From the NCBI RefSeq assembly GCF_027887165.1, contig NC_077231.1, positions 124,819,987 to 124,883,986 on the forward strand: a stretch of 64,000 nt of DNA, given 5' to 3'. The notes under the pieces are model-generated. The model saw only the letters and a program-made list of their open reading frames with translations. It searched no databases and was not told the origin of the DNA. Both the position numbers and the translations under genes were made by a program. Positions within the stretch are counted from its first letter, which is position 1; every line of letters starts with the position of its first letter. The DNA is from Monodelphis domestica. Its lineage: Eukaryota; Chordata; Mammalia; Didelphimorphia; Didelphidae. Below are positions 1,862 through 15,718 of the stretch, in pieces.

Positions 1862-2583
1862 TAAAACTTCCCGGTCTGTGAGAAGTTTTAAGGTAGGAAA
1901 ATAGAAACAGGATAGAAGTTTTGGATCCCACGAAGGGCGTGAAAGAGTCAACCTTTGATATATGAATAAATGAGTCAGTAATCAATTATTAATATTCGGG
2001 AGCCACAGCCCTGCTCCGACCACTGGACGTTACTATTAAGGCTATTCCCATCCAATGATCCCAATTTAACACTGCACTGGTCAAAGGATAATACTAGCTC
2101 AGTAGGAAAGGAGATTAGAAACTAAAGGAGTTAGATAATGCTAGGTATTAGCATTGGAAAAGAGAGAGAGACAGGAAGGTCTGACCGAAGGGCCAGGCCT
2201 CAGGGAAAAAGATAGAGAGGAGAGAGAAAGGGGAGAAGTTGCTCCTTGGCAAACCTGTTGATGTCCTCGAAGTGGGAGGAGCTGGCTGCGTCCCTTTCTT
2301 TTATTCTCTTTGATACACAAATGAGCTCAATACATATTGATAAGTTACATGATGCCTCAATACATATAGATGAGTTACATAGTGTATTGCCATTGGATAA
2401 TTGCAAATTATGACAAGGTGAAGGTGGGGTTATTATCCTCAGGTGAGTGAGACAAAGGGAAGCAAGGTTTCGCCCCCTAACTTCAGCCACACTGGGAATA
2501 GAGTTCATTGCCATGCGCAGAATGGCCATGTGCTCACTCACAATCCTTGTCTCTCTATAATACCTATGGGCTGGACTGCTACA
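1862..2583 (-). mobile_element. Solo LTR, family A, copy 1 (endogenous retrovirus-like fossil)
   Basis: Minus-strand LTR opening TGTAGCAGTCCA, flanked by a perfect 5-bp target duplication GATAA (1857-1861 and 2584-2588). Its 3' edge forms a 9-bp hairpin, TAAAACTTC with GAAGTTTTA (1862-1892). It is the most diverged of the three family A copies, so probably the oldest. No internal region; the element is a broken remnant. Confidence 0.8.
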
Positions 2584-2629
2584 GATAACAACTGGCCAAG
2601 CCAATATTTGAATCAGGTGTTCTGATTTC

Positions 2630-2960
2630 TCATCTAGTGATCTTTCTACCATACTACATGCTGAATCAACACTGGTTGAATAATTAATGTAAAAGAGAAC
2701 CAGTGGATCTAATTTCTTCCATCTATCAAAAAGCCTTTGACAAAATTCCATATTGATGGCAAAAAAAAAAAAGCATCATTTAGGTCATAATGGGATTGGT
2801 TGGTATGGGAACTTAGCAAATCATTGGAAACTCGAGTAAGGTAGGAACAAATGGGTTCTTCTCCAGCTGGTGAGTGGGAATTATAGGTCTCGGTGTTTAT
2901 AAACATGTATAAAAATGATCTGTAGAATACTTTGTAAAATTTCCAAGTTTGCTTATATTA
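2630..2960 (+). repeat. CR1/L3-like LINE remnant
   Basis: Contains phrases of a CR1-clade 3' region (CTTTGACAAAATTCC, ATGTATAAAAATGATCTG) and an internal poly-A stretch. Diverged; low confidence. Confidence 0.35.
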
Positions 2961-3004
2961 GAAGGGTAAAACAAAAAGCAAGACTTTTATTATAATTTTG
3001 TTTT

Positions 3005-3671
3005 TGTAGCAGTCCACCCCTATCTAGGGACAAGGGAAACAGTTAGAAGGTACAGAGGGGCTTAGAAGAGAGCATGCTCAGTCTTGCGCATGGCTAGGAA
3101 AGCCTCTGACCCTTGACCCCAGCTTTCCCCAGGTGAAGCGGGAAAACAGGTTTCTTTGTGTTCACCTGGCTAAGATAAACCACACCTATACCTTGTCGTT
3201 AACCAATGATAATCATCCCTATGTATCGTGTATATTTGCATATCAAAGACATTAAAAACAGAGCCACAGCAATCTCCACCCTCTCTCGCTCTCTTGGATC
3301 TCAGCTCTCACTGATGCCTGTCCTGGCTGGAGCTTGGCCTCTGGCCAAGCTCCATCTTTAATTCCTTTCCTTCTCTATCTCTCTCACCTGGGACCTGGCC
3401 TTCGGCCAGGCACTTTCTTTTCTCTATTGTCTCTCCAACCTGTGTGGTATTAAATTTGGATCACTGGGTGGGATTAGCCTTTTGGAAAGAGGTCCAGACT
3501 GATCGGGGTTCTGCTGTGGCTCCATTATAATCAATAAGGCCTGGTTTTCTGACTCACTTCTGCCATCTCATATCTATAACTTGGCTCCGCCACGCCCCTC
3601 GCAGTATCCAAAACTTCTATCCTTCCTCTATCTTCCTATCTTGTGGCTTCACGCTGGTTCGGGAAGCCACA
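3005..3671 (+). mobile_element. Solo LTR, family A, copy 2 (endogenous retrovirus-like fossil)
   Basis: Runs TGTAGCAGTCC to GGAAGCCACA, 667 bp, with a perfect 5-bp target duplication GTTTT (3000-3004 and 3672-3676). A poly(A)-signal-like ATTAAA lies near 3450. The 3' edge is a perfect 9-bp hairpin, TGTGGCTTC (3642-3650) with GAAGCCACA (3663-3671). No internal region. Confidence 0.88.
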
Positions 3672-4064
3672 GTTTTTAACTTTACATATGAAAAGGTACC
3701 TCCAAGAGGCAAAAACTCTGAGAGGAAAACAGGAAGAAGAACACAACACCATGGAAACAGAATGGCTGCCAGATGTCTTTATGCCATGTCAAAAGGAGAA
3801 AGGGTTTTTCAGGATGCTTAATGCTTTTTTGAAGAAGCTGATTGGTGCTTTCAACTTCAGCTTTCCCTTCACTCTTTTTAATCAGTATAGTAGATTTTTG
3901 GGTCTAGGATGGCAAATGATCATCCAAACTAGGGCTTAAAGCTGACCTCCACATACTATGGCAGCCAATTACTAATATTGCTTATAGCAGGTGGGAGGTA
4001 AGGGTAGGAGGGAGTCTTACTTAGATGTATTTTATTGGTTTCCCATCTCTGATGCCAATCAATG

Positions 4065-4720
4065 AATTAATCAATAATACTTATGGAATACCAACTATGG
4101 ATCAGGCAATGCTCAAGATACTGGGTCCATAGAACCAAAGATAAAACAGTACTTGCCCTCAAGGAGTTTATATTCTTTCAGGGAAGATGATATGTAGAAA
4201 AGTAAATATATAGAAAATAAATAGATTGTGTTTGGGAAAGGGGAAACCCTAGTAGTTAGAGGGAGGGGATCAAGAAAAGCTTCATGTATAGATTGGCACT
4301 TAAGATGAACTTCAAAGGAAACTAGAAATACTAAGAGGCATAAGAAGAGAGTTCATAGGAGGCAGTTGGGTAGCTCAGTGGAATGAGAGCCAGGCCTAGA
4401 GACAGGAGGTCCTAGGTTCAAATCTGGCCTCAGACACTTCCTAGCTGTGTGACCCTGGGCAAGTCACTTGACCCCCATTGCCTAGCCCTTACCACTCTTC
4501 TGCCTTGGAGCCAATACACAGTATTGATGCCAAGACAGAAGGTAAGGGTTTAAAAAAAAAGAGAGAGAGTTTCATGTCACAAGCAAAGAAACACCAACTA
4601 ACAAAGGTATATATGGTCCAAGGAATTTTCTAGAGTGGAAATTTTAAGGTATAAAAAAATTCTAGAAAACAGAAATGGTGCCAGGCAGAGGAAGTGGACA
4701 TGTCTGAGGTAAAGACAGTA
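4065..4720 (+). repeat. Old long interspersed repeat (family R) split by a SINE
   Basis: Fits the common therian repeat that opens with a phrase like ACCTACTATGTGCCAGGCA, continues CTCAAGGAGTTTATATTCT and later GTCACAAGCAAAG. I do not assert its database name. A SINE sits in it at 4359-4560. Confidence 0.45.
4359..4560 (+). mobile_element. Marsupial CORE-SINE, near full length
   Basis: Opens with a tRNA-like promoter part (GGGTAGCTCAGTGGAATGAG, GGTTCAAATCTGG), then a MIR-like core (CTAGCTGTGTGACCCTGGGC), and ends AAGGTAAGGGTTT plus A9. The flanks share a diverged target duplication, about AGAGAGTTCAT. Best-preserved copy in the window. Confidence 0.85.
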
Positions 4721-4871
4721 CCAAAAAAATTTGGTCCAAAACACAAGGTTTTCTTGGACTATAAATTCTTTCCACTTACTGAAATATGGAGGCTGAAGGA
4801 AAATCTTACAAAGTCTTTTATGCAGGTACAAAAAAAGATGAAAGTCAAATGATATATTTAAAGGAATGGAC

Positions 4872-4873
<2 letters not shown>

Positions 4874-4909
<36 letters not shown>
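4874..4909. repeat. (CA)n microsatellite
   Basis: Pure CA run of 36 bases. Confidence 0.97.
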
Positions 4910-4911
<2 letters not shown>

Positions 4912-4954
4912 CAAGTCACATTCCTAGAGCACAGCTGGCTATATCTCAGTCAGC

Positions 4955-5310
4955 CAATGACATTTATTAAAGTGCCTACTAGGTGCCAGGCACTCTGCTA
5001 AACATTGGGGACCCCAAAAGAGGCAAAAGATAGTTCCACTCTCAAGGAGCTCACAGTCTAATGGGGGAGAAAACAAGCAAAGAAATATGTACAAACCAGC
5101 AATACAAGATAAATAGGAAGCAACTGCCAGAAGGAAGGCACTAGAATTAAGAGGAGTTGAGGAAGGCCACCAATAAAAAATGAGATTTTAGTTGAGAGGT
5201 CAATAGTCAGTCTGGAGAAGATAAGAGTGTTCCAGGCACATGGGGGATAGCCAAAGAAAATGCCTAGAACCTAGAAATGGAGTGTCTTGTTCATGAAACA
5301 GCCAGTAGGC
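4955..5310 (+). repeat. Family R repeat, 5' part
   Basis: Begins TTTATTAAAGTGCCTACTAG and TGCCAGGCACTCTGCTAAAC and continues through CTCAAGGAGCTCACAGTCTA to TGTCTTGTTCATGAAACAGC. From 5310 to 6267 nothing further was recognised. Confidence 0.6.
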
Positions 5311-6267
5311 CAGTGTCACATCTCCCCTCAAGATTATAAAAATACCTTTGAGGAACTGTGGGGTACTTCTCATGTTATCAGCTTGAAATTCCCATCAGTT
5401 TTGTTCCCCTCAATATCATCACCAATGATTAGTGCCCTAGTATCAGTTATAACTAAATAGTATCTCCTCATCCTTGATAAATACTTAATATAAATGTGTT
5501 CCTATAATGAGATATTTATTGATAAGAAATAGAATGAAGAGTATAAGTACTTCTCCCTGGATGGGGGGGATGATCTCCCTCAACTCCCTTGGGTCAGCTT
5601 AAAGTGGTTACTACTAAACATTCATCCCACCAAGCTTACATCTAGGTGTGGCATAGCTATTAGGTAATCCTTGTTATAGAACATGACATCTTGGTAGACG
5701 GAACTTCATCACTGGGAGTTTCCACACCAATGAAGTTACAAGTTCAGATTTAAGATATACATACTTTACATACATACCTAACAAGTTCTCAGTTATAACT
5801 TTTTAGATTCTGCCTAGATTACACCAGTGCAAATGGCCAACAAAACACAAGATATTAGATAATAGAAAAATAAACCCAAACCTTATGTTTATAAAAAAAA
5901 TCAGTCTAAACCTAGGATTCTATCATTAATCCTAGCCAAAACTGATGATGAAGAATACAATGGAACAGGGAAAAGCTCTGAAGAGGAGATTTAATATGAA
6001 AAGGATATGGGGATTGCTATATGAATTGGAGAAGATTAAGATTTAGTAGGAAATTCAGATGTTGAGAGGAAATATGCTTAATCAACCAGTCAGTCAACAA
6101 GTAATAACTAGGTACCCATTAAGTGTCAGGCACAGGCTTACCCCTAGGATCCTGAAGGAATTTAAATAGAATGTGGTCTTCCCCTTCTTTGGGAAGTGGA
6201 GTATAGTAGGGTAAGCCTGTCCAGGGAAGGTAGGCAGCCAATGACTCCTGTAAAGAGATATGCTAGC

Positions 6268-6395
6268 GGGCAGCTGGGTGGCTCAGTGGATTGAGAGCCG
6301 GGCCTAGAGAGGGGAAGTCCTAGGTTCAGATCTGACCTCAGACCCTTCCTAGTTGTGTGACCTTTAGCAAGTTACTTAACCCCCACTGCCTAGCC
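6268..6395 (+). mobile_element. CORE-SINE, left part (split by a hAT element)
   Basis: Starts GGGCAGCTGGGTGGCTCAGT and reaches CCACTGCCTAGCC, where the hAT element begins. The remaining part resumes at 7142. Confidence 0.85.
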
Positions 6396-7133
6396 CTGTG
6401 ATGGCAAACCTATGACTCATGTACACACATAGTCATTTTCAATGACATATAGCAGCATGCAGGCTCAGTAGGGCAGGCAGGCTTGTGGGTAGCAGCTGCT
6501 GCTCTAGCTCCACCCTCAGGCCGGAAGGCTGGGGAGGGGTGGAAGGGGCCCAGCAGGAGCCTCCAGCCCATATATAATGGAGGAGTGCCTGGAACCAATC
6601 ACCAGACACTTTTAGCACCCTGAAAAATATAGCAATGCCTTTACTCATGATTTTTCCCTCTATGTACTTTTGTGAGACCTTATTCTCAGTGTTAAATAAT
6701 GTCAAAACCAACAAAAGAAACAGATTGACAGATGAAATTAGTAGCACTTGCTTGGGCTTGAAGTATACAAAAGACCAACCTTCAATTGAAGATTTAGCCA
6801 ATGAAATTCAGCAACAAAAAAGTCACTAATAGGCAGGTTAGTTAAAGAATTCCCCCTCACCCTCACTTATCTTAGTTTGGGACACCCCACACAAGTTAAA
6901 TAATATCAAAACCAACAAAAGAAACCAACTGACAGATGAACAAAGAAGTCACTAAGTTAAATAATTAGTTTTTGGTTTACTAAATACAGTTACATATTAC
7001 AATTATACATTTTTTGTTAAATTACAAATATCAAAAAATTATGGGTTTTTTCTTGAAGTGACATATCACCCAAGTTATGCTCAGTTTTTTGGTGAATTTT
7101 GACATACCAAGCTCAAAAGGTTGCCCATCACAG
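6396..7133 (+). mobile_element. hAT DNA transposon fragment with transposase C-terminus
   Basis: Terminal inverted repeats CTGTGATGGCAAACC and GGTTGCCCATCACAG. The 8-bp target duplication is GCCTAGCC / GTCTAACC (6 of 8 match). Positions 6635-6826 encode the end of a hAT transposase (dimerisation region): CETLFSVLNNVKTNKRNRLT, then DEISSTCLGLKYTKDQPSIE and a final QQQKSH. The rest of the transposase is missing, so this is an internally deleted copy. About 45 bases (6693-6738) are repeated at 6895-6941. Confidence 0.8.
6635..6826 (+). pseudogene. hAT transposase, C-terminal fragment
   Basis: 63 residues; the pattern CETLFS..N..KT..RNRLTDE....CLGL..T..QPSIEDLA is the hAT C-terminal signature shared with ZBED/SCAND3-like domesticated proteins. 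It lies inside the terminal repeats, so it is a transposon remnant and not a host gene. Confidence 0.75.
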
Positions 7134-7141
7134 GTCTAACC

Positions 7142-7216
7142 CTTACCACTCTTGTGCCTTGGAACCAATACAAAATATTGATTCTAAGACAAAAGGTAAG
7201 GGTTAAAAAAAAAAAA
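7142..7216 (+). mobile_element. CORE-SINE, right part
   Basis: CTTACCACTCTTGTGCCTTG to AAGGTAAGGGTTA plus poly-A; completes the SINE begun at 6268. From 7217 to 8100 nothing further was recognised beyond AT-rich sequence. Confidence 0.85.
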
Positions 7217-8106
7217 GATACTGCAGTAGGGAGCTCATCCATTATACATTATATTAGAACTATCTTAATTCTTATGTATTGAAGAAACATAAAAAGAGAC
7301 TTCTATGAGGATTAAGTCTGGCGAAGAATTTGTTTTCCTATCACAATTGGAGAGAAACTGGGAAACAGTGAGATGAGGGATAGAAAGACTTTTTTGGATG
7401 AAGTCTTGATGTTTTCCTTTAGAAGATTTTTGAGAAGAAACTTTAGTTGGTGTCTCTAGAGAAACTAAATGTATACAATTGGATTTTCAGAACTTATGGA
7501 AAAGTCATCTGCCCTTCATTACAATGAAAGTCTAACGTGAATCTGATTTGGATCTTTTGCACAATTGAAAATGATTTTAAAAATTATATGTGTATTTGGT
7601 TTTTATTGATTTAGTTTTAATAAATCATGTTAAGTTATCGTAATATATATGTATTTGTTTGTAAGAGATTTACTATATAGAGAAGAGTAAAATTAGTCAT
7701 TGGGAAATGAGATTTCTCTAAGTTTCTTAAATAATATTTAATGAACTGTGGTGGAAGCTTAAGCTTAATTAATGAGAAAGCTGTCATAGTTTTACTAATT
7801 AGGAAAAAAACATCCAAATACACACTTTCTCAAGCTCAGGATAACAAAACCAAGTATTTATCTTTCCTCACAATTCCACCTCTATTTCAAACTTCCCTTT
7901 TTCTTGTAGGGATCCCCTATTTTTCCAGTCATAGAGATGTTACAACTTTAATGTTGTCTTGAAATCTTCACTCTCTTTCACCTAACATTAATTCTGTTGC
8001 CAAGTCATCATATATTCCTCTACACTTTCATATTAGTCCTCTCTCCCAACTCTCATGACTTACCACCACGGTTCATGTCCTCATCCCCTTTCCCTCTTAC
8101 TGTTGT

Positions 8107-8245
8107 TCAGTTGTTTCAGCCATGTCAAACAGGTTAAGTGACTTGTCCAGGATCACACAGCTTGTAAATGTCTGAGGCCAAATTTGAATTCAGGAAGCTG
8201 TCTTCCTGATTTGGGGCCCACCACTGTGCAGTCTAGTCACACTCC
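8107..8245 (-). repeat. MIR-type SINE remnant
   Basis: Minus orientation: GTTAAGTGACTTGTCCAGGA and TCACACAGCTTGTAAATGTC are the complement of the MIR core. Confidence 0.7.
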
Positions 8246-8249
8246 CTTC

Positions 8250-8765
8250 CCTTTCCTTAGATTAGTGCAATAACTTACTAATTGTTCTCCTGCTTTAAGT
8301 CTCTCCCCTTTCTAATCCATCCTTTACACAGCTGCCTATGATTTTCCAAAATTGTAGGTCTGATCATGTCACTTCCTTGTACTTCTTCATTAATTCCCAG
8401 TGACTCCCTGTATCCTCTAGGATCAATTATAAGCTCCTGTTTGTTTAGCATTTAAAGCTCTTTATGACCTGTGAATGCAGCCTTTATACATTTACTACAC
8501 ATTATTCCCCTTCATGTACTCTCCAATTCATTCAAACTGGTCTTCTTGCTCCTTTCTGTCTCTGGGTTTCTGCACTGGATATTCCTCCTGTCTGGAATGA
8601 ATTACCATCTCCTCTTCACCTCTTGGAATCCCTGGTTTCCATCAAGACATAGCTCAGAGCCACCTTCTACTGGACGCCTTTTTTCTAGCTGTCAATGCCT
8701 ACTCCCAAAGGTTCCCTTATACTTACATTACATTATGTGTTTTGTATATATTTAGGTAGCAAACT
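8250..8765 (+). mobile_element. L2 LINE 3' fragment
   Basis: Matches the L2 3' pattern: GATCATGTCACTTCCTTGTA, then TCAATTATAAGCTCCTGTTT, TTAAAGCTCTTTATGACCTG and a late TCTGGAATGAATTACC. Two overlapping short open frames here are chance frames in the LINE. 8766-9550 holds only a short CA run near 9375. Confidence 0.6.
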
Positions 8766-9565
8766 ATGCAGGAGTTGACTGCACTTACACGTCAGCCCTC
8801 TGTCTGTGACTTACATTTAGTTGTATTTAATCATGTATAATTTAACTATATTTAAGCAGAATTTGGGTGCATGAAGAGTCTTGTAACAATCAAGGAAATA
8901 ATGGATGTCAGATGAACCTCAGTCTTATCTGAAAAGTACAAAGGAAGGTCGAACACACACAGTTTGGTTTAATATCAATCACAACAGGGAAATGAGGAGA
9001 AGGGAAGAGAGTTAAGAGGGAGAATGATCACAGGGAGGGGATGGTACAAACACAATAAACTTCCTGACACTGAAGAAAGAAAAGAAAGAACTAGAATATA
9101 AGTGGCATGGGCATCGTACTCCCCAAACCCAGGCAAACTGCAAGCAGGGAAATTCCTTTACTCCCTTCAGTCCTCATGACTCCTAGCCCAAGAACATCTG
9201 ATAACTTCTATAAGACCCTGAGATTATTATCATCTTTAGATCATCCATTAGATTTGAGATGGATTTAGAGATGTACCTCCAGGTGATACCATTGGGTTGT
9301 TTCTCAGACATCTAGCTGTCCCCTAAACTATAAGGGTCTTCAGCAGACCCTGGTCAGATGACCACCACCACCCCCCACACACACACACACCACCAAAAGT
9401 CTGAGTGTTTACCACTCTAGAATCATGTCCATACCATGACACAACATCACGTCCCCACTGGTGTAAAAAGTATATAATCCCTAGAATTGGTGGATTCTGG
9501 GAGCAGCCTTTCATCTTGCTGTTCCACCTATACTATCCTCCTGGCCAGTTTCAACATTACTTTCT

Positions 9566-9766
9566 TTGTTTTTTTTTTTTAATCCTTACCTTCTGTCAAT
9601 ACTGTATATTGGTTCCAAGGCAGAAGAGTGGTAAGGGCTAGGCAATGGGGGTTAAGTGACTTGCCCAGGGTCACACAGCTAGGAAGTGTCTGAGGCCAGA
9701 TTTGAATCTAGGACCTCCCATCCCTAGGCCTGACTCTTAATCCACTGAGCTACTCAGCTGCCCCCA
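9566..9766 (-). mobile_element. CORE-SINE with perfect 15-bp target duplication
   Basis: Reverse orientation, from poly-T and AATCCTTACCTTCTGTCAAT to GAGCTACTCAGCTGCCCCC. TCAACATTACTTTCT occurs at 9551-9565 and 9767-9781, an L1-type target-site duplication. A relatively young insertion. Confidence 0.9.
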
Positions 9767-9904
9767 TCAACATTACTTTCTAAATTAATAAATTTTTCTT
9801 TTTATTTTTAAGCTAAGTTTTGGAGCCTTGTGTTCTTGCAAAAGTTATCCTTCCTGAACCCCAGGGGTTCACCTCTAGTACCCCACAACATAAGGGCTAA
9901 CTTA

Positions 9905-9958
9905 AGTTGCCTCAGTTGGGGAATGGATGAACAAACTGTGGTATCTGAATATAATTTT
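9905..9958 (+). repeat. L1 3' fragment (short)
   Basis: CAGTTGGGGAATGGATGAAC and AAACTGTGGTATCTGAAT are typical of the L1 ORF2 tail (WLNKLWYM region). The LTR-like block that follows appears to have landed in it. Confidence 0.5.
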
Positions 9959-9960
9959 AA

Positions 9961-10576
9961 TATCCAACATGGAATCTAGAAGCCCCCAAACTTGTAGCCT
10001 AGAAAGATTAAAAGAACCCCAGTTTACTTGGCTTAAGGGTGAAGGCTCCTGGTTTGACCTTATCACTTGAGAGTTCCTCCCTGAGGGAAAGTCCTACTTC
10101 ACTAATCTCAGACCAACAATAGACTTTAAGAGGTTCCATATCTCTTTTGTCCCAATGGTTTCTCCCCCTAGGCTAAAGTCCTTTACTGGTGGTCTGGCCC
10201 TTGGTTGGGTCTTTCCCTTTTGGGTCCATGTAAAGCATTCACCCCTCACTGTGATTCCTGGCTGAAACTCCTCATTTTCCTTTGTTACCATTGTAAAATC
10301 AATCTTCTATCCCTCTCATTATCAGCCCCCATGTTCCACCTAGAAAGGTATTTAAGCTCCCCAACTTTAATGGCTCTTTGGAAATGTCAATCTCTCAAGT
10401 CTGGCACTCCCAGGGCTCCATGTCCAGAGCGGCCAGAGTTCAATCCTCGATTCTGTGCAGTCGTGTGGGGGCAGTTCTGTGTTGAGGCCTACTATTGCAT
10501 TGAACCCCTTTCCCTTGATTAAAGAGTGGTTTTTAACTATTTGATAGTTCTGTGTTTTTTCCCAGTCAACACTCCA
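9961..10576 (+). mobile_element. Solo LTR-like fossil, family D, copy 1
   Basis: CCAACATGGAATCTAGAAGC near the start, a TATA-like GGTATTTAAGCTCC near 10347, and a poly(A)-like GATTAAAGAG near 10518. Homologous in reverse orientation to 10862-11447. No target duplication was found, so the ends are approximate. A broken remnant. Confidence 0.55.
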
Positions 10577-10861
10577 GAAGAAATGACAAAAGAGAAGATT
10601 TTAGAGTCCTATCGTATGCCCTAATATAGAGTGAGAACTATTTCTACAAGGACTGCAACACTGGAAAGAAATAAACAGAAATGCCTAAGAATTTTGAACA
10701 ATAATTTCGACCATCCATGTCACCACCAGAAACCCTATCCTGAAGCACGACGTGACCTAACTTTTGCCAGATAGAAAATCCACCCAAGATGCAGAGACAT
10801 GCTTTTTTTCCTTTTTTAACATGGCCTTCATGTGAATTCATTTTGCTTAATTTGGCTTATT

Positions 10862-11447
10862 TGTCCCAGGAGTTCTTTGCTTTTTCTCTCAGTCTTTAAT
10901 TCAAGTCAGAACCAGTAAAAGGGTAGGAATAGAGATGCCACAGATAGCAGGGCAGCTTTAAAAGTGACTGTAAATTTGGATCCATCTTATTTTTCACCAG
11001 CCCCTGGGAGTGCCACCGACTCAGGATGGGCTCCGAGGAACAAAAGAACTTGGGGAACCTATATGCCACTCTAGGTGACCTGGGGGCTTTAGGATTAGAG
11101 GGACAGTTGATTGACTTTACAATGGTAAGAAAGGAAAATGAAGAGTTCCAGACAGGAATAATAGTGAGGGGCTGGGGCCCTACAATGGACACAAAAGGGA
11201 AAGACTCAGCCTAGGGCTGGGTCACCTTGGTCATGGACCTTAGCCTAGGGGGAAGAAACCATTGGGACAAAAGGGATGTTTAATATTGGATGGGATTAGC
11301 TGTTCCCACCCAAACTACCAGGAAGCTCACTGTCTGATGAAGAGGGACCTTCCCTCAGGGGGAAACCTCTCCTGTGACAAGGTCAAAACCTGGGGTTTCT
11401 ACACTCAAACTAAATAAACTGGGGATCTCTAGATTTCCATGTTGACA
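10862..11447 (-). mobile_element. Solo LTR-like fossil, family D, copy 2
   Basis: Minus orientation, opening TGTCAACATGGAAATCTAGA, then CCCCAGTTTATTTAG as in copy 1. The left end is approximate. The opposite orientation to copy 1 rules out a single two-LTR provirus. Confidence 0.5.
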
Positions 11448-11849
11448 AGTATTTAAGTTCAGATTTTTTTTAAAGAATTAAGAAATTATTAATAACATTG
11501 GGATAGCACTTTCAGTTGAGTGATGAGTTTGAAGCCAGTTTACAAAGCATGGAGAATAAATGAAAAAGAGCACAACTGTTTTAGGAATTTGAGAAAGGAA
11601 GCAGAGTTTTAATATGACAAAATGCTTAAACGGATGATGGTCTAGTATAGGTTTGATTTGGTTTTTTAGGACGACTGAGAATTGGGAATGCATAATGGCA
11701 AAGAGGGTAGGAAGAGTGATTGAGAAGTATGTTTTTTCTCATTTACAGGAGTTGGCCTAGCCAAGAACAAGGACTAGCTTCCACATAGTCTGAAACTGAA
11801 AGGGGGTGGGGCGAGAGATAGGGAGAGAGGGAAAGAAGAAGAGAGGGGC

Positions 11850-11850
<1 letters not shown>

Positions 11851-11880
<30 letters not shown>

Positions 11881-11893
11881 GGCAGGCAGGCAG
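11851..11893. repeat. (GACA)n/(GGCA)n microsatellite
   Basis: About eight GACA units followed by GGCA units. The rest of 11450-13850 shows no gene; a possible weak family R trace lies near 12540-12730. Confidence 0.9.
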
Positions 11894-13813
11894 AGACAGA
11901 GAGGTGATATCAAGGAGCCTTTCTGAAATCACCAGAAGGCAGTACACCAATTCTTTTGAAGGAGATTCAGTGCAGTAAGAACAGAAGAGGTACAGAGTGA
12001 AGAAGTTGCATTACAGTTTGGGGCCCTTGTGTTTCAGAACAGTGCAAATCTCTCTTAAAGAGTGTCTCCTCCTCTTGCTGTCTTACACTTCCCTTTATAT
12101 CCTAGTTTCTTCATCAGTAAAAATAAATAGTTGTACAGGCTAATTTCTACAGTTCCTTCCAGGTTGAAAAGTGTGAATTTTTTCTTTCTCTCTTCCTTTT
12201 ATTCCAAAAGTTCCATAAATTTGGAGGATAGTGGGGAGGACCTCCATAATTATATCCTAATTCAAATGGACTAGATGACCTCCTTTCAAATCCTGAATCC
12301 CACTTTACTTGGATATTTCAGCAAATGGGAGTGTAACAGATTTTCTGGAAGGCAGTTGAATGCATTCCTTACACTTTTAAAGCTAATGACTCTCAATGTT
12401 ATGCAGATGAAAGAATGGCCCAGTCTAGGCCCAGAAAGACAATCTGGTTGATTCAGGGAAAAGAAAAGGTTGGTTCAGGTATAATCTGGGTATTGAAATG
12501 GGGAAATTTATCCCTTAAAAGAAAATAGATATCATTGTGTTTATTCTTAGCTCCCTGAAACAAATATTTAGTAGAAGCCTAGATGTACTGGACTTATGTA
12601 GATTCTGGGGCTACAATGTAAAAGACTGGGAAAAAAGACACATTTATTCTGGCCCTCCAGTAGTTTACTGTTTGATAGGCATGTGGCCTGTATATAAATA
12701 CAGAGATACAAAATATAAAGTGCTAAGGGTTTTAGGAATATAATATATGGTCTCCATATGTATATATGTATAAATCCTGATAATCACATCCTAGATGTGC
12801 CTAAATGATTTAATTTCTAATCTAAAAGATGAAGTAACCACTTTAAATGTCCCATTCATTTTGCCAGTATCTCAATTTCCCAACAATTTTGCTTTTCCCC
12901 TTTCTGTGCTGAGCCTTTTTGCAGAACACAGCTCTAAATTGGGGAAAGTAGAATAAACAAAATATACTTGTATGGGTAAAAAAGTGGAGAGCTAATTGTG
13001 TGGAAATTACAAGTTGGAAAATTAAGCATTAAGGGTGAAAAAAGGGGTTTAAGTGGTTGTGTTAAATTTATAAAGTTAAAGCTAACCAGGCCCTAATACC
13101 ATTCCAAAATCCCCTACAGTATTTCTTTTTATTATTTACAGTAAGAAACCAAATATTCCACTTAAAATCTTGAACTATTTCTTCAATGGCATAAAAGCAG
13201 TTTAGGCAAATTCTCTTAAAGTCAGGCCACTAACCAAAGCTGGTAGGGGAGAAAGGCTGGTCTTTCCTTTCTACCTTTAGCCTCAGATCCCAGTCATACT
13301 TTAGGTTTCCTCAATGGGCAGGTAGACACAGGTAGGTCCTATGTCGTTTAACCTCTTTGGGTTTAATGAGCAGGGTTATACTAGATGGCACTGAAATTCT
13401 CTTTAAGCTTTCAAACTATGAGCCTATATTCCTATGAATATGTGTTGTAGTTGCTACTAGTTATACCAAATGAAATCCTTGAACTAGCATGCCTAAAGAC
13501 AACTTCACTCCCAATCTGTCACTCATGTCTTGGCAAACACTGTTCCTCTCCCCTCTGCTTTTTTTTAGTCCTTTGGCTGCTCTCCTATTTCTTTCTCTCA
13601 TACTTCTGGTTCGGCCCATTCCTGGAAGCTTCACAATACTTTCTGAATTATATTAATCTGGGCAGCCACAAATAAAACCCTTGGCATATCACGAAAACAA
13701 ACAAACAAAAACACCTTGGGGTTTAATCCCTGCTCTCAATACCAACCCAGATCTGCCATCTGCCATCTGGTGGCTTTGTGAATTATAAGTGTTCTTTTAT
13801 TTCCCTGCCCCTT

Positions 13814-13828
13814 GGGGGGGGGGGGGGA
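13814..13828. repeat. Poly-G run
   Basis: About 15 consecutive G bases; length is prone to sequencing error. Confidence 0.9.
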
Positions 13829-14714
13829 GGAATGACTCCAGAAGGCTCTGTAGGGAACTTTCATTCATTCATTCAATAAGAATTTATTAAATGCCTACTA
13901 TATACCTGGCATTGTACTAAATTCAGGGGATACATAGGCAAAAATTAAATGATTCCCCATCTCATTGAGCTTGTATTGTATTGGGGGAAACAATATATAC
14001 AAGTAAGTGTAGCGGGGAGTGAAATGGCTGCAAGGATAGGTTCAGGGCAGGGATGAAACTACAGTAGAGGTTAGAAGACAAGGATGAGATTTTGTTAGTC
14101 CCCTGAGTTGACCCATCACCATTTTAGCTTATTATTGATTTAATCCATTGGAAAGATTTCTGGGACTTTTTTCCAACCAGATTTCTAGACTGCCATTCCA
14201 TGAGTCTTTATGTATTTCTGAGATTAAACAAGCTCAAAAGACTATGAGTTCTCAGTGGCACAAGCAATTTCTCAGCCATTTGCTACTTGTTGTGGCCATC
14301 CAAGCTGGATGATGTATAGGATCAGCTTTGACAAATCCTGAAGTAGTGAACTGTGGACTTGGAATGGAGAAAGAATCATGAAATTGTGGTGACTGAGGGA
14401 TACTAGGAGCACCAGCAAAACAGTACTATATAAGAAGTAAATAAAAGTAATTAGAGGGTAATATAATCAGGGCATCAAGAAAAACCTTTGTAGAAGGGGG
14501 CACTGACCTTTGAAAGAAGCTAGATACTTTAAAAGGTGGAGGTAAAAAGAGAGTGGAATTCCAAGCATAAGACAGATTGTACAAAGTTACAGAGATAGGA
14601 GATGGAATGTCATATGTAGAAAGAGTCAGTGATCCAAAGTAATATGTAATTAGTCTGAAAAGAATGTTTAGATGTAAGGCTATAAATTAAGAGAGCAATT
14701 AGTTTATCCTAGAG

Positions 14715-15718
14715 CAGTGATGGTGAACCTTTTAGAGACCATATGCTAAGCTAAAGCTTCCCGAGGAGAGAGAAGCTTTAAGGTAGGAAGATAGAGGAAG
14801 GATAGAGGTTCTAGATACTGTGAGGGGGGTGGCGGAGCCAAATTAGAGATATGAGGTGGCAGGAATGAGTCAGAAATGCAGGCCTTATTAATTATCAATG
14901 AGCCACAGCAAAACTCCCATCAGTGGACTACTCAGAAGGCTTGTACCCATCCAGTGATCCAAATTTAATACCACACAGGTCGGAGACATGATAGAGAAAA
15001 GAAAGTGCCTGGCTGAAGGCCAGGTCCCAGGTGAGAGAGATAGAGAAGGAAAGGAATTAAAGATGGAGCTTTGATATGCAAATATACATAGGGATGATTA
15101 TCATTGGTTAATGACAAGGTATAGGTGTGGTTTCTCTTAGTCAGGTGAACCCAAAGAAACCTGTTTTCCCACCTAACCTGGGGGAAGCTGGGGTCAAGGG
15201 TCAGAGGCTTTCCTAGTCAAGTGCAAGACTGAGCATGCTCTCTTCTAAGACAATCTGTACATACTGTTTCCTTGCCCATAGCTAGGAGTGGACTGCTACA
15301 TAAGCCCCCACTTGGTGCCAAGCATGCCCTTCCCCCCCCCTTATCCCATAAAGGAGAAGAAGAAAGCATTCCCATTGGATTGCTGGGCAGAAGGGCAGGT
15401 GAAGTGAGGAATGTCCTCAGTGAGTTAAGAGACAGGGAGAGGAGTGGCCTGAGTGTTCTGCTTCCCCTCTAGCTCTGCTGCCTGTGAGCCACCCCTTTAC
15501 CCCAGTATGCACCCATTGGACTACTAGGTAGAGGGACAGGTGATGCGAAAAAATGTCATCAGGCACAGTGGAGAGGGGGAAAGGAGCAGCTCTTTCCAAG
15601 ACCCTCTTGTCTTTTTAGTAATGAACTCTGGGGGTGGGGGGCAGAGTGGTGCACATGCCTACAGAGAGAGCTCTTTATGCCATCTTTGGCACCCATGCCA
15701 TAAGTTTGCCATCACTGT
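14715..15718 (+). mobile_element. Non-autonomous hAT element with perfect 8-bp target duplication
   Basis: Terminal inverted repeats CAGTGATGGTGAACC and AGTTTGCCATCACTG. The duplication TCCTAGAG is at 14707-14714 and 15719-15726. Without the inserted LTR it is about 450 bp. The interior has a partial tandem duplication: the CCCATTGGATTGCTGGGCAG block at about 15371 recurs, diverged, at about 15511. Related to the MITE at 59253. No transposase seen. Confidence 0.85.
14752..15300 (-). mobile_element. Solo LTR, family A, copy 3 (endogenous retrovirus-like fossil)
   Basis: Minus orientation, opening TGTAGCAGTCCACTCC at the right edge. Perfect 5-bp target duplication TAAGC (14747-14751 and 15301-15305). 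The 3' edge is a perfect 9-bp hairpin, TAAAGCTTC with GAAGCTTTA (14752-14780). It lies inside a hAT element, so it is younger than that element. Broken remnant without internal region. Confidence 0.85.

What the first reader, a model, noticed from the sequence alone, without database searches (positions are those of the whole stretch)
1862..15300. Covarying terminal hairpin in three sibling solo LTRs
Three LTRs of one family (1862-2583, 3005-3671, 14752-15300), each fixed by its own perfect 5-bp target duplication, end in a perfect 9-bp hairpin with an 11-12-base loop. The stem differs between copies, yet both arms change together: TGTGGCTTC/GAAGCCACA, TAAAGCTTC/GAAGCTTTA, TAAAACTTC/GAAGTTTTA. 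Four of nine pairs vary and none is broken. Unselected fossils should lose pairing, so the stem was probably maintained while the family was active, either as an RNA structure next to the primer site (compare the U5-IR stem of avian retroviruses) or by fold-back copying. It also means the LTR edge itself varies (CA or TA at the last two bases) without loss of integration. I know of no description of this in a marsupial LTR family.
Basis: partly seen in the sequence, partly recalled or inferred. Interest (0 to 1): 0.8.

Follow-up and report, generated by a model that had tools for sequence, protein, structure and literature searches.

The report
Covarying RNA hairpin ending marsupial LTRs
A large family of retrovirus remnants in this marsupial genome ends its long terminal repeats in a small hairpin whose two arms changed together as the family evolved, a sign that the folded RNA was kept by selection beside the site where reverse transcription starts.

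Summary
Confirmed, and it extends beyond the window. All three window LTRs end in a perfect 9-bp stem at an edge fixed by an exact 5-bp target duplication. In 64 LTRs of the same genome, with edges set by a motif and the duplication rather than by pairing, 501 of 576 stem cells are Watson-Crick and 44 G-U. Independent columns simulated on the LTR tree never reached this (0 of 2000). Genome-wide word counts agree: TGTGG/CCACA 153, TAAAG/CTTTA 939, crossed combinations 9 and 2. Single changes from paired states gave G-U 19 times, A-C 4 times, pointing to sense-strand RNA. In 7 proviruses the stem ends 2 nt before a Lys-type primer site. I read it as a U5-IR-like stem overlapping the integrase attachment site. 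The LTR edge does vary: 37 of 64 end TA, 25 CA. Function is inferred. Few changes are independent, and the pairwise sign test cannot reach significance. Some related subfamilies do not pair to the last base.

The parts
1862..2583 (-). Solo LTR A (722 bp)
   Evidence: TGTAGCAGTCC start on the minus strand, TTTTA edge, flanked by GATAA
1857..1861 (.). Target duplication GATAA, left of LTR A
   Evidence: identical to 2584-2588
2584..2588 (.). Target duplication GATAA, right of LTR A
1862..1890 (-). Terminal hairpin of LTR A: arms 1862-1870 and 1882-1890, 11-base loop; LTR sense TAAAACTTC/GAAGTTTTA
3005..3671 (+). Solo LTR B (667 bp)
   Evidence: TGTAGCAGTCC start, CACA edge, flanked by GTTTT
3000..3004 (.). 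Target duplication GTTTT, left of LTR B
   Evidence: identical to 3672-3676
3672..3676 (.). Target duplication GTTTT, right of LTR B
3642..3671 (+). Terminal hairpin of LTR B: arms 3642-3650 and 3663-3671, 12-base loop; TGTGGCTTC/GAAGCCACA
3328..3354 (+). Second, internal hairpin of LTR B (12-bp stem, TCT loop), probably in R; a T-A to C-G variant occurs in relatives
14752..15300 (-). Solo LTR C (549 bp)
   Evidence: TGTAGCAGTCC start on the minus strand, TTTA edge, flanked by TAAGC
14747..14751 (.). Target duplication TAAGC, left of LTR C
   Evidence: identical to 15301-15305
15301..15305 (.). Target duplication TAAGC, right of LTR C
14752..14780 (-). Terminal hairpin of LTR C: arms 14752-14760 and 14772-14780, 11-base loop; LTR sense TAAAGCTTC/GAAGCTTTA

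Best explanation
The last about 30 nt of U5 in this marsupial ERV family form an RNA stem-loop in the genomic RNA that ends 2 nt before a Lys-type primer binding site. While the family was active, selection kept the stem paired. Single changes in one arm were tolerated as G-U or compensated in the other arm, giving successive stem types (TGTGG, TGAGG, TAAAG, TAAAA with matching 3' arms). The 3' arm is also the U5 attachment end that integrase processes, so one 9-nt stretch serves RNA folding and DNA integration. The most likely job is the one assigned to U5-IR stems: presenting the primer site and tRNA for initiation of reverse transcription. Shown: the stem, its covariation, its place beside the primer site, the CA/TA edge. 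Inferred: selection on RNA rather than DNA, from the G-U excess. Not shown: the initiation function.
For: Pairing-independent edges give 545 of 576 paired cells; whole 3' arms dealt at random among copies give 429 WC on average (max 459) against 501 observed, 0 of 2000. Tree-aware null: 0 of 2000 on either count. Whole-genome arm words: 153 and 939 matched against 9 and 2 crossed. TAAAG stems occur in two well-separated clades of the LTR-body tree, and TGTGG re-emerges inside a TAAAG clade with nearly the same bases between the arms (L060 against L054). G-U 19 against A-C 4 among single changes from a Watson-Crick pair at positions 1-8, p 0.0026. Five of five provirus leaders folded (of 7 read) show the terminal hairpin, also with the primer site held open. 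Exactly 2 nt separate the edge from TGG of the primer site in all 7 provirus 5' LTRs read.
Against: Independent coordinated changes are few: the independent-pairs test has 5, 4, 4 and 2 usable pairs at positions 2, 3, 4 and 5, with on average 2.9, 2.7, 0.6 and 1.0 going the same way and none the opposite way, too few for significance. Positions 4-9 taken singly do not clearly beat the tree-aware null. That null is a home-made parsimony simulation, not R-scape. Recombination between co-circulating elements could move a ready-made U5 end and inflate apparent recurrence. L041 and L058 leave the last four bases (TTTA) unpaired, and L026 and L049 do not fold into a hairpin at the edge. Four of 64 copies are mismatched at position 3. 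No function was measured.
Confidence: 0.72

Rival explanations
1. DNA-level palindrome: arms are equalised by fold-back (snap-back) copying of a single strand during reverse transcription or repair, with no selection on RNA.
For: Perfect stems are common (26 of 64 all Watson-Crick) and the 3' arm lies at a DNA end, where fold-back copying is conceivable.
Against: Fold-back copying makes Watson-Crick pairs, yet G-U is the usual state of whole groups: TGAGG/CTTCA 6 and TGTGG/CTACA 5 of 64 rows. G-U exceeds A-C 19:4, although both are mismatches in DNA and equally likely without selection.
Confidence: 0.1
2. Recombination: a few ancestral U5 ends arose long ago and were shuffled as blocks between LTR lineages, so the recurrence of stems on the tree is not recurrent compensation.
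For: LTR lineages co-existed and template switching is routine in retroviruses (general knowledge). The short U5 end has little phylogenetic signal of its own.
Against: In the 10-row TGTGG group inside TAAAG both arms changed while the bases between them stayed nearly as in related TAAAG copies (L060 against L054), which would need two exchanges within about 30 nt. It does not explain why the original variants are paired.
Confidence: 0.25
3. Integrase-driven: the 3' arm evolves to suit integrase, and the resemblance of the 5' arm is incidental.
For: One group has a U5 end (GCTACA) that mirrors the U3 end (TGTAGC), accepting a G-U pair.
Against: Integrase contacts the terminal DNA (general knowledge). 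This gives no reason for the 5' arm, about 20 nt inside, to follow; genome-wide the matched words outnumber the crossed ones 1092 to 11.
Confidence: 0.05

Closest known systems
U5-IR stem-loop of avian sarcoma-leukosis virus (Miller et al. 1997; seen here only as a cited reference in passages of PMC3601003)
   Same: A hairpin in U5 just upstream of the primer binding site; U5 bases that also belong to the integration end (recalled for ASLV)
   Different: Different sequence and host lineage; here the stem ends at the very LTR edge, 2 nt from the primer site, and natural covariation includes the terminal dinucleotide; the primer site is Lys-type, not Trp
HIV-1 PBS-segment (TLE/PAS stems; passages of PMC11181671)
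   Same: Structured RNA around the primer site that also holds the integrase attachment site; conservation and covariation are reported for the TLE stem
   Different: A three-way junction, not a self-contained terminal U5 hairpin
Self-priming 5' hairpins of Tf1-like LTR retrotransposons (mentioned in passages of PMC3601003)
   Same: Hairpin-based role in starting reverse transcription
   Different: The proviruses read here have a tRNA-type primer site next to the hairpin, so self-priming is not needed
LTR elements with non-canonical ends (TGTT and AACA subfamilies of Rosaceae; title and start of abstract of PMC5659011 in the listing)
   Same: LTR ends other than TG...CA that still spread
   Different: Plant elements; here the change at the edge is matched by a change in the other arm of a stem

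Membership tests
Retroviral/ERV LTR | TG start and exact target duplication | tested here: met
   three window LTRs; the 64 sampled copies were selected for an exact 5-bp duplication, and the 6th base agrees in only 13 of 64
Retroviral/ERV LTR | CA at the 3' edge | tested here: not met
   25 of 64 end CA, 37 TA, 1 AA, 1 CC; TG...TA is known as a rare variant (recalled)
Retroviral/ERV LTR | primer binding site 2 nt after the LTR | tested here: met
   7 of 7 provirus 5' LTRs read
Class II (ERVK/betaretrovirus-like) ERV | Lys-type primer binding site | tested here: met
   TGGCGCCCAACGTGGGGC in L163 and related words in the other six; identity with tRNA-Lys1,2 is recalled
Class II (ERVK/betaretrovirus-like) ERV | class II pol | tested here: inconclusive
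   27 different stop-free pieces (28 submitted, one twice) in four Pfam scans: best retroviral match IN_DBD_C at E 0.038, below cut-off; no match of any kind above its cut-off
Class II (ERVK/betaretrovirus-like) ERV | 6-bp target duplication (usual, recalled) | tested here: not met
   duplications here are 5 bp
U5-IR stem-loop | stem in U5 next to the primer site | tested here: met
U5-IR stem-loop | stem kept by compensatory change | tested here: met
   few independent events, sign test not significant
U5-IR stem-loop | needed for initiation of reverse transcription | not testable with these tools
   needs bench work
U5-IR stem-loop | match to a described RNA family | tested here: not met
   seven provirus loci gave four matches at E 0.73-4.8, none retroviral and all below gathering scores; window none at gathering

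The most novel reading that the evidence does not exclude
In this family the RNA stem and the integrase attachment site are the same bases, and keeping the stem paired has carried the usually invariant terminal CA to TA and back. Integrase specificity and RNA folding co-evolved at the LTR edge, and the record is readable in hundreds of fossil copies and in very recent insertions of the same genome.
Probability: 0.35. Interest if true: 0.72.

Novelty: new variant of a known kind. Interest (0 to 1): 0.6.

Why it matters
U5 stems beside the primer site are known mainly from a few laboratory retroviruses (recalled). Here one genome holds over a thousand copies of just two of the stem types, plus a few naturally mismatched ones, so the tug between RNA folding and integrase recognition at an LTR end can be studied from natural variation. 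It also shows that solo LTRs, not usually read for RNA structure, can carry a covariation signal.

Tried and rejected
Chance: rejected. Misaligned arms: rejected, because both arms were placed by anchors that do not use pairing, and sliding the register by 1-3 bases drops Watson-Crick cells from 501 to 238 or fewer. A 7-bp duplication that includes TA, so that the edge is not really TA: rejected, the two bases before the 5' duplication are TA in only 7 of 64. Classifying the internal region by protein domains: 28 submitted pieces (one submitted twice, so 27 different) from four internal stretches of three proviruses gave no match above its cut-off, and one piece had no solved-structure match. 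Rfam gave nothing relevant. A covariation claim for the R-region hairpin was not pressed: the search mixed two neighbouring hairpins. Whole-genome word tables for position 3 and for the direction of wobble at position 4 were not obtained: searches (five patterns; the first of them again) all met a busy machine.

Rows dropped before counts: one search examined 159 sequences (L001-L158 without L151 and L152, plus the three window LTRs). 69 gave rows; 64 had a start and a motif match but no exact duplication at the edge, 11 no start, 5 no motif, 10 were duplicates. From the 69, five (L036, L039, L049, L058, L129) were dropped by the motif and length filter; L045 was dropped as well for the 63-row tree counts. 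Of 66 loci sampled by the LTR start, 26 entered the 64; of the other 40, 26 had no exact duplication after CA or TA and 14 had at least one candidate, several of them probably chance. One of the 66, L153, was fetched with too short a stretch by my own slip in the coordinates. A first attempt at the provirus LTR comparison failed and was redone, whose script stopped with an error after printing that comparison; its folding part was redone.
Full report
What is there. The three LTRs are confirmed at 1862-2583 (minus), 3005-3671 (plus) and 14752-15300 (minus), each with an exact 5-bp duplication, and each ends in a perfect 9-bp stem at the edge. B and C are close relatives (86-87% over aligned parts). 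A is more distant (about 70%, over its 3' part and a few short stretches). All three stand as single LTRs, each with its own duplication; A and C lie on the opposite strand to B.

Genome. The window lies in a 3.586-Gb assembly of 13 contigs. The LTR start TGTAGCAGTCC occurs 4359 times (2169 + 2190) against 98 for the reversed control. Not all of these belong to this subfamily group.

Sampling. One search listed 100 places, all on contig C1. The first 13, at spacings of 25-48 kb, were left out of the sample; six of the eight that were fetched (L003-L008) match alike. Of the other 87, 66 were fetched. Further places came from a U5 motif just upstream of the hairpin (2781 matches, control 723, so about a quarter is background). 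Of the 100 places listed there, 30 came as loci and 52 were fetched; 13 with the word TATTTTCCTATCTT were left out as likely background and 5 because they were already held. Edges were set by the motif on one side and the exact duplication on the other, never by pairing. After filtering, 64 LTRs remain, three of them the window's own.

Pairing. Of 576 stem cells, 501 are Watson-Crick, 44 G-U and 31 unpaired. Position 2 is 33 A-T, 26 G-C, 4 G-T and 1 other; position 3 is 44 A-T, 14 T-A, 2 G-T or T-G and 4 mismatches; position 4 is 34 A-T, 14 G-T, 12 G-C and 4 mismatches; position 5 is 55 G-C, 5 G-T, 3 A-T and 1 mismatch. Dealing whole 3' arms among copies gives 429 WC on average (max 459 in 2000). 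Mutual information at positions 2 and 3 is highest with the true partner (0.71 and 0.59). At position 4 it is higher with 3' column 2 (0.66) than with the true partner (0.33), because the stem types change as blocks (all). The two samples agree: start-sampled 197 WC + 24 G-U of 234 cells, motif-sampled 277 + 20 of 315.

Tree. The LTR bodies, without the terminal 45 or so bases, give a tree with 25 of 60 inner branches strongly supported. TAAAG stems sit in two clades separated by branches with 100/100 support, next to relatives with TGTGG or TGAGG; one further TAAAG copy (L131) lies in the TGAGG group. Inside the larger TAAAG clade a 10-row group (100/99) has TGTGG or TGAAG with CCACA, CTACA or decayed forms. 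Simulating each column independently with its own number of changes on this tree gave 399 (sd 50, max 524) paired cells against 539 of 567 observed, and 314 (sd 52, max 472) WC against 497: 0 of 2000 in both. By position, 2 and 3 stand out on both counts (paired reached by 40 and 3 of 2000, WC by 7 and 0). Positions 4 and 5 are suggestive (paired 74 and 222; WC 399 and 63), and 6-9 do not stand out. The independent-pairs sign test finds 5, 4, 4 and 2 usable pairs at positions 2-5, on average 2.9, 2.7, 0.6 and 1.0 in agreement and none opposed, which cannot reach significance. So pairing is far beyond chance, but the number of separate compensations is small. An earlier run on a quicker tree gave the same picture.

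Genome-wide words. CTTGTGGCTTC followed 8-18 bases later by GCCACA occurs 153 times; with GCTTTA 9 times, five of which look like family members. CTTAAAGCTTC with GCTTTA occurs 939 times, some counted on both strands; with GCCACA twice. A Fisher test gives p 8e-174, but the copies are not independent, so this number is not a real probability.

RNA or DNA. From a Watson-Crick pair, one change led to G-U 19 times and to A-C 4 times at positions 1-8 (p 0.0026); without selection the two are equally likely. Counted as cells, 44 against 4. That favours pairing in sense-strand RNA over a DNA palindrome.

Place in the element. In the 7 provirus 5' LTRs read, the edge is followed by 2 nt (GA, AA, CA or TA) and then TGGCGCC or, in one, TGGCACC; L163 reads TGGCGCCCAACGTGGGGC, which I recall as the tRNA-Lys1,2 primer site. 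The two TA-edged proviruses (L159, L161) show the TA edge beside the primer site too, though their 5' flanks were not fetched, so their duplications are unchecked. Five of these leaders were folded and all show the hairpin, with or without the primer site held open. Folding the last 150 nt keeps at least one of the three outermost pairs in 52 of 64 LTRs.

Age. Four of four proviruses of the CTACA group have identical LTRs (604, 614, 609 and 595 bases, no mismatch), so part of this family inserted recently. The coding state of the interior is not resolved: 27 different stop-free pieces gave no match above a Pfam cut-off.

Limits of the claim. Fourteen start-sampled loci outside the 64 had a candidate edge. 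L019, L036 and L039 fold with the last base paired (L019 as TGTAACCTC/GAGGTTGCA); L041 and L058 have a strong hairpin but leave TTTA unpaired; L068 leaves three bases unpaired; L026 and L049 do not form it; the other six are probably chance duplications. A hairpin near the U5 end is thus common in the wider group, the pairing of the last bases not.

Literature. Seven paper searches were answered. I saw passages of PMC3601003, PMC11181671 and PMC11334065 (no occurrence of 'hairpin' in its main text), and only listings of others. I saw no description of a covarying U5 hairpin in a marsupial LTR family in these. The library lacks most subscription journals, and the ASLV U5-IR paper I tried is not held, so absence from print is not established.

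Noticed in passing
3328-3354 (+): A second perfect hairpin inside LTR B (GGAGCTTGGCC, TCT loop, GGCCAAGCTCC in its core); relatives carry GGAGCCTGGCC/GGCCAGGCTCC, a matching two-sided change, so R may be structured too.
   Followed up: partly
L070/L071, L077/L078, L079/L080, L099/L100: Four provirus pairs with identical LTRs (no mismatch in about 600 bases each): very recent insertions of the group with U5 end CTACA.
   Followed up: partly
L003-L008 and G000:C1:47738-452806: The LTR start recurs every 25-48 kb over 13 places; six of eight fetched ones match alike: probably a tandem segmental duplication.
   Followed up: no
L163, L159, L161: In three of seven proviruses the 2 nt between LTR and primer site repeat the edge dinucleotide (CA-CA, TA-TA, TA-TA); in the other four they do not (GA, AA).
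   Followed up: no
L054 and others, LTR offset about 65-91: A U3 inverted repeat GAGCATGCTC...GAGCATGCTC in many of the 32 rows printed, possibly a protein-binding palindrome.
   Followed up: no
14752-15300 (-): LTR C lacks about 100 bases present in B, including the 5' arm of the R hairpin, so it is an internally deleted copy or variant.
   Followed up: no
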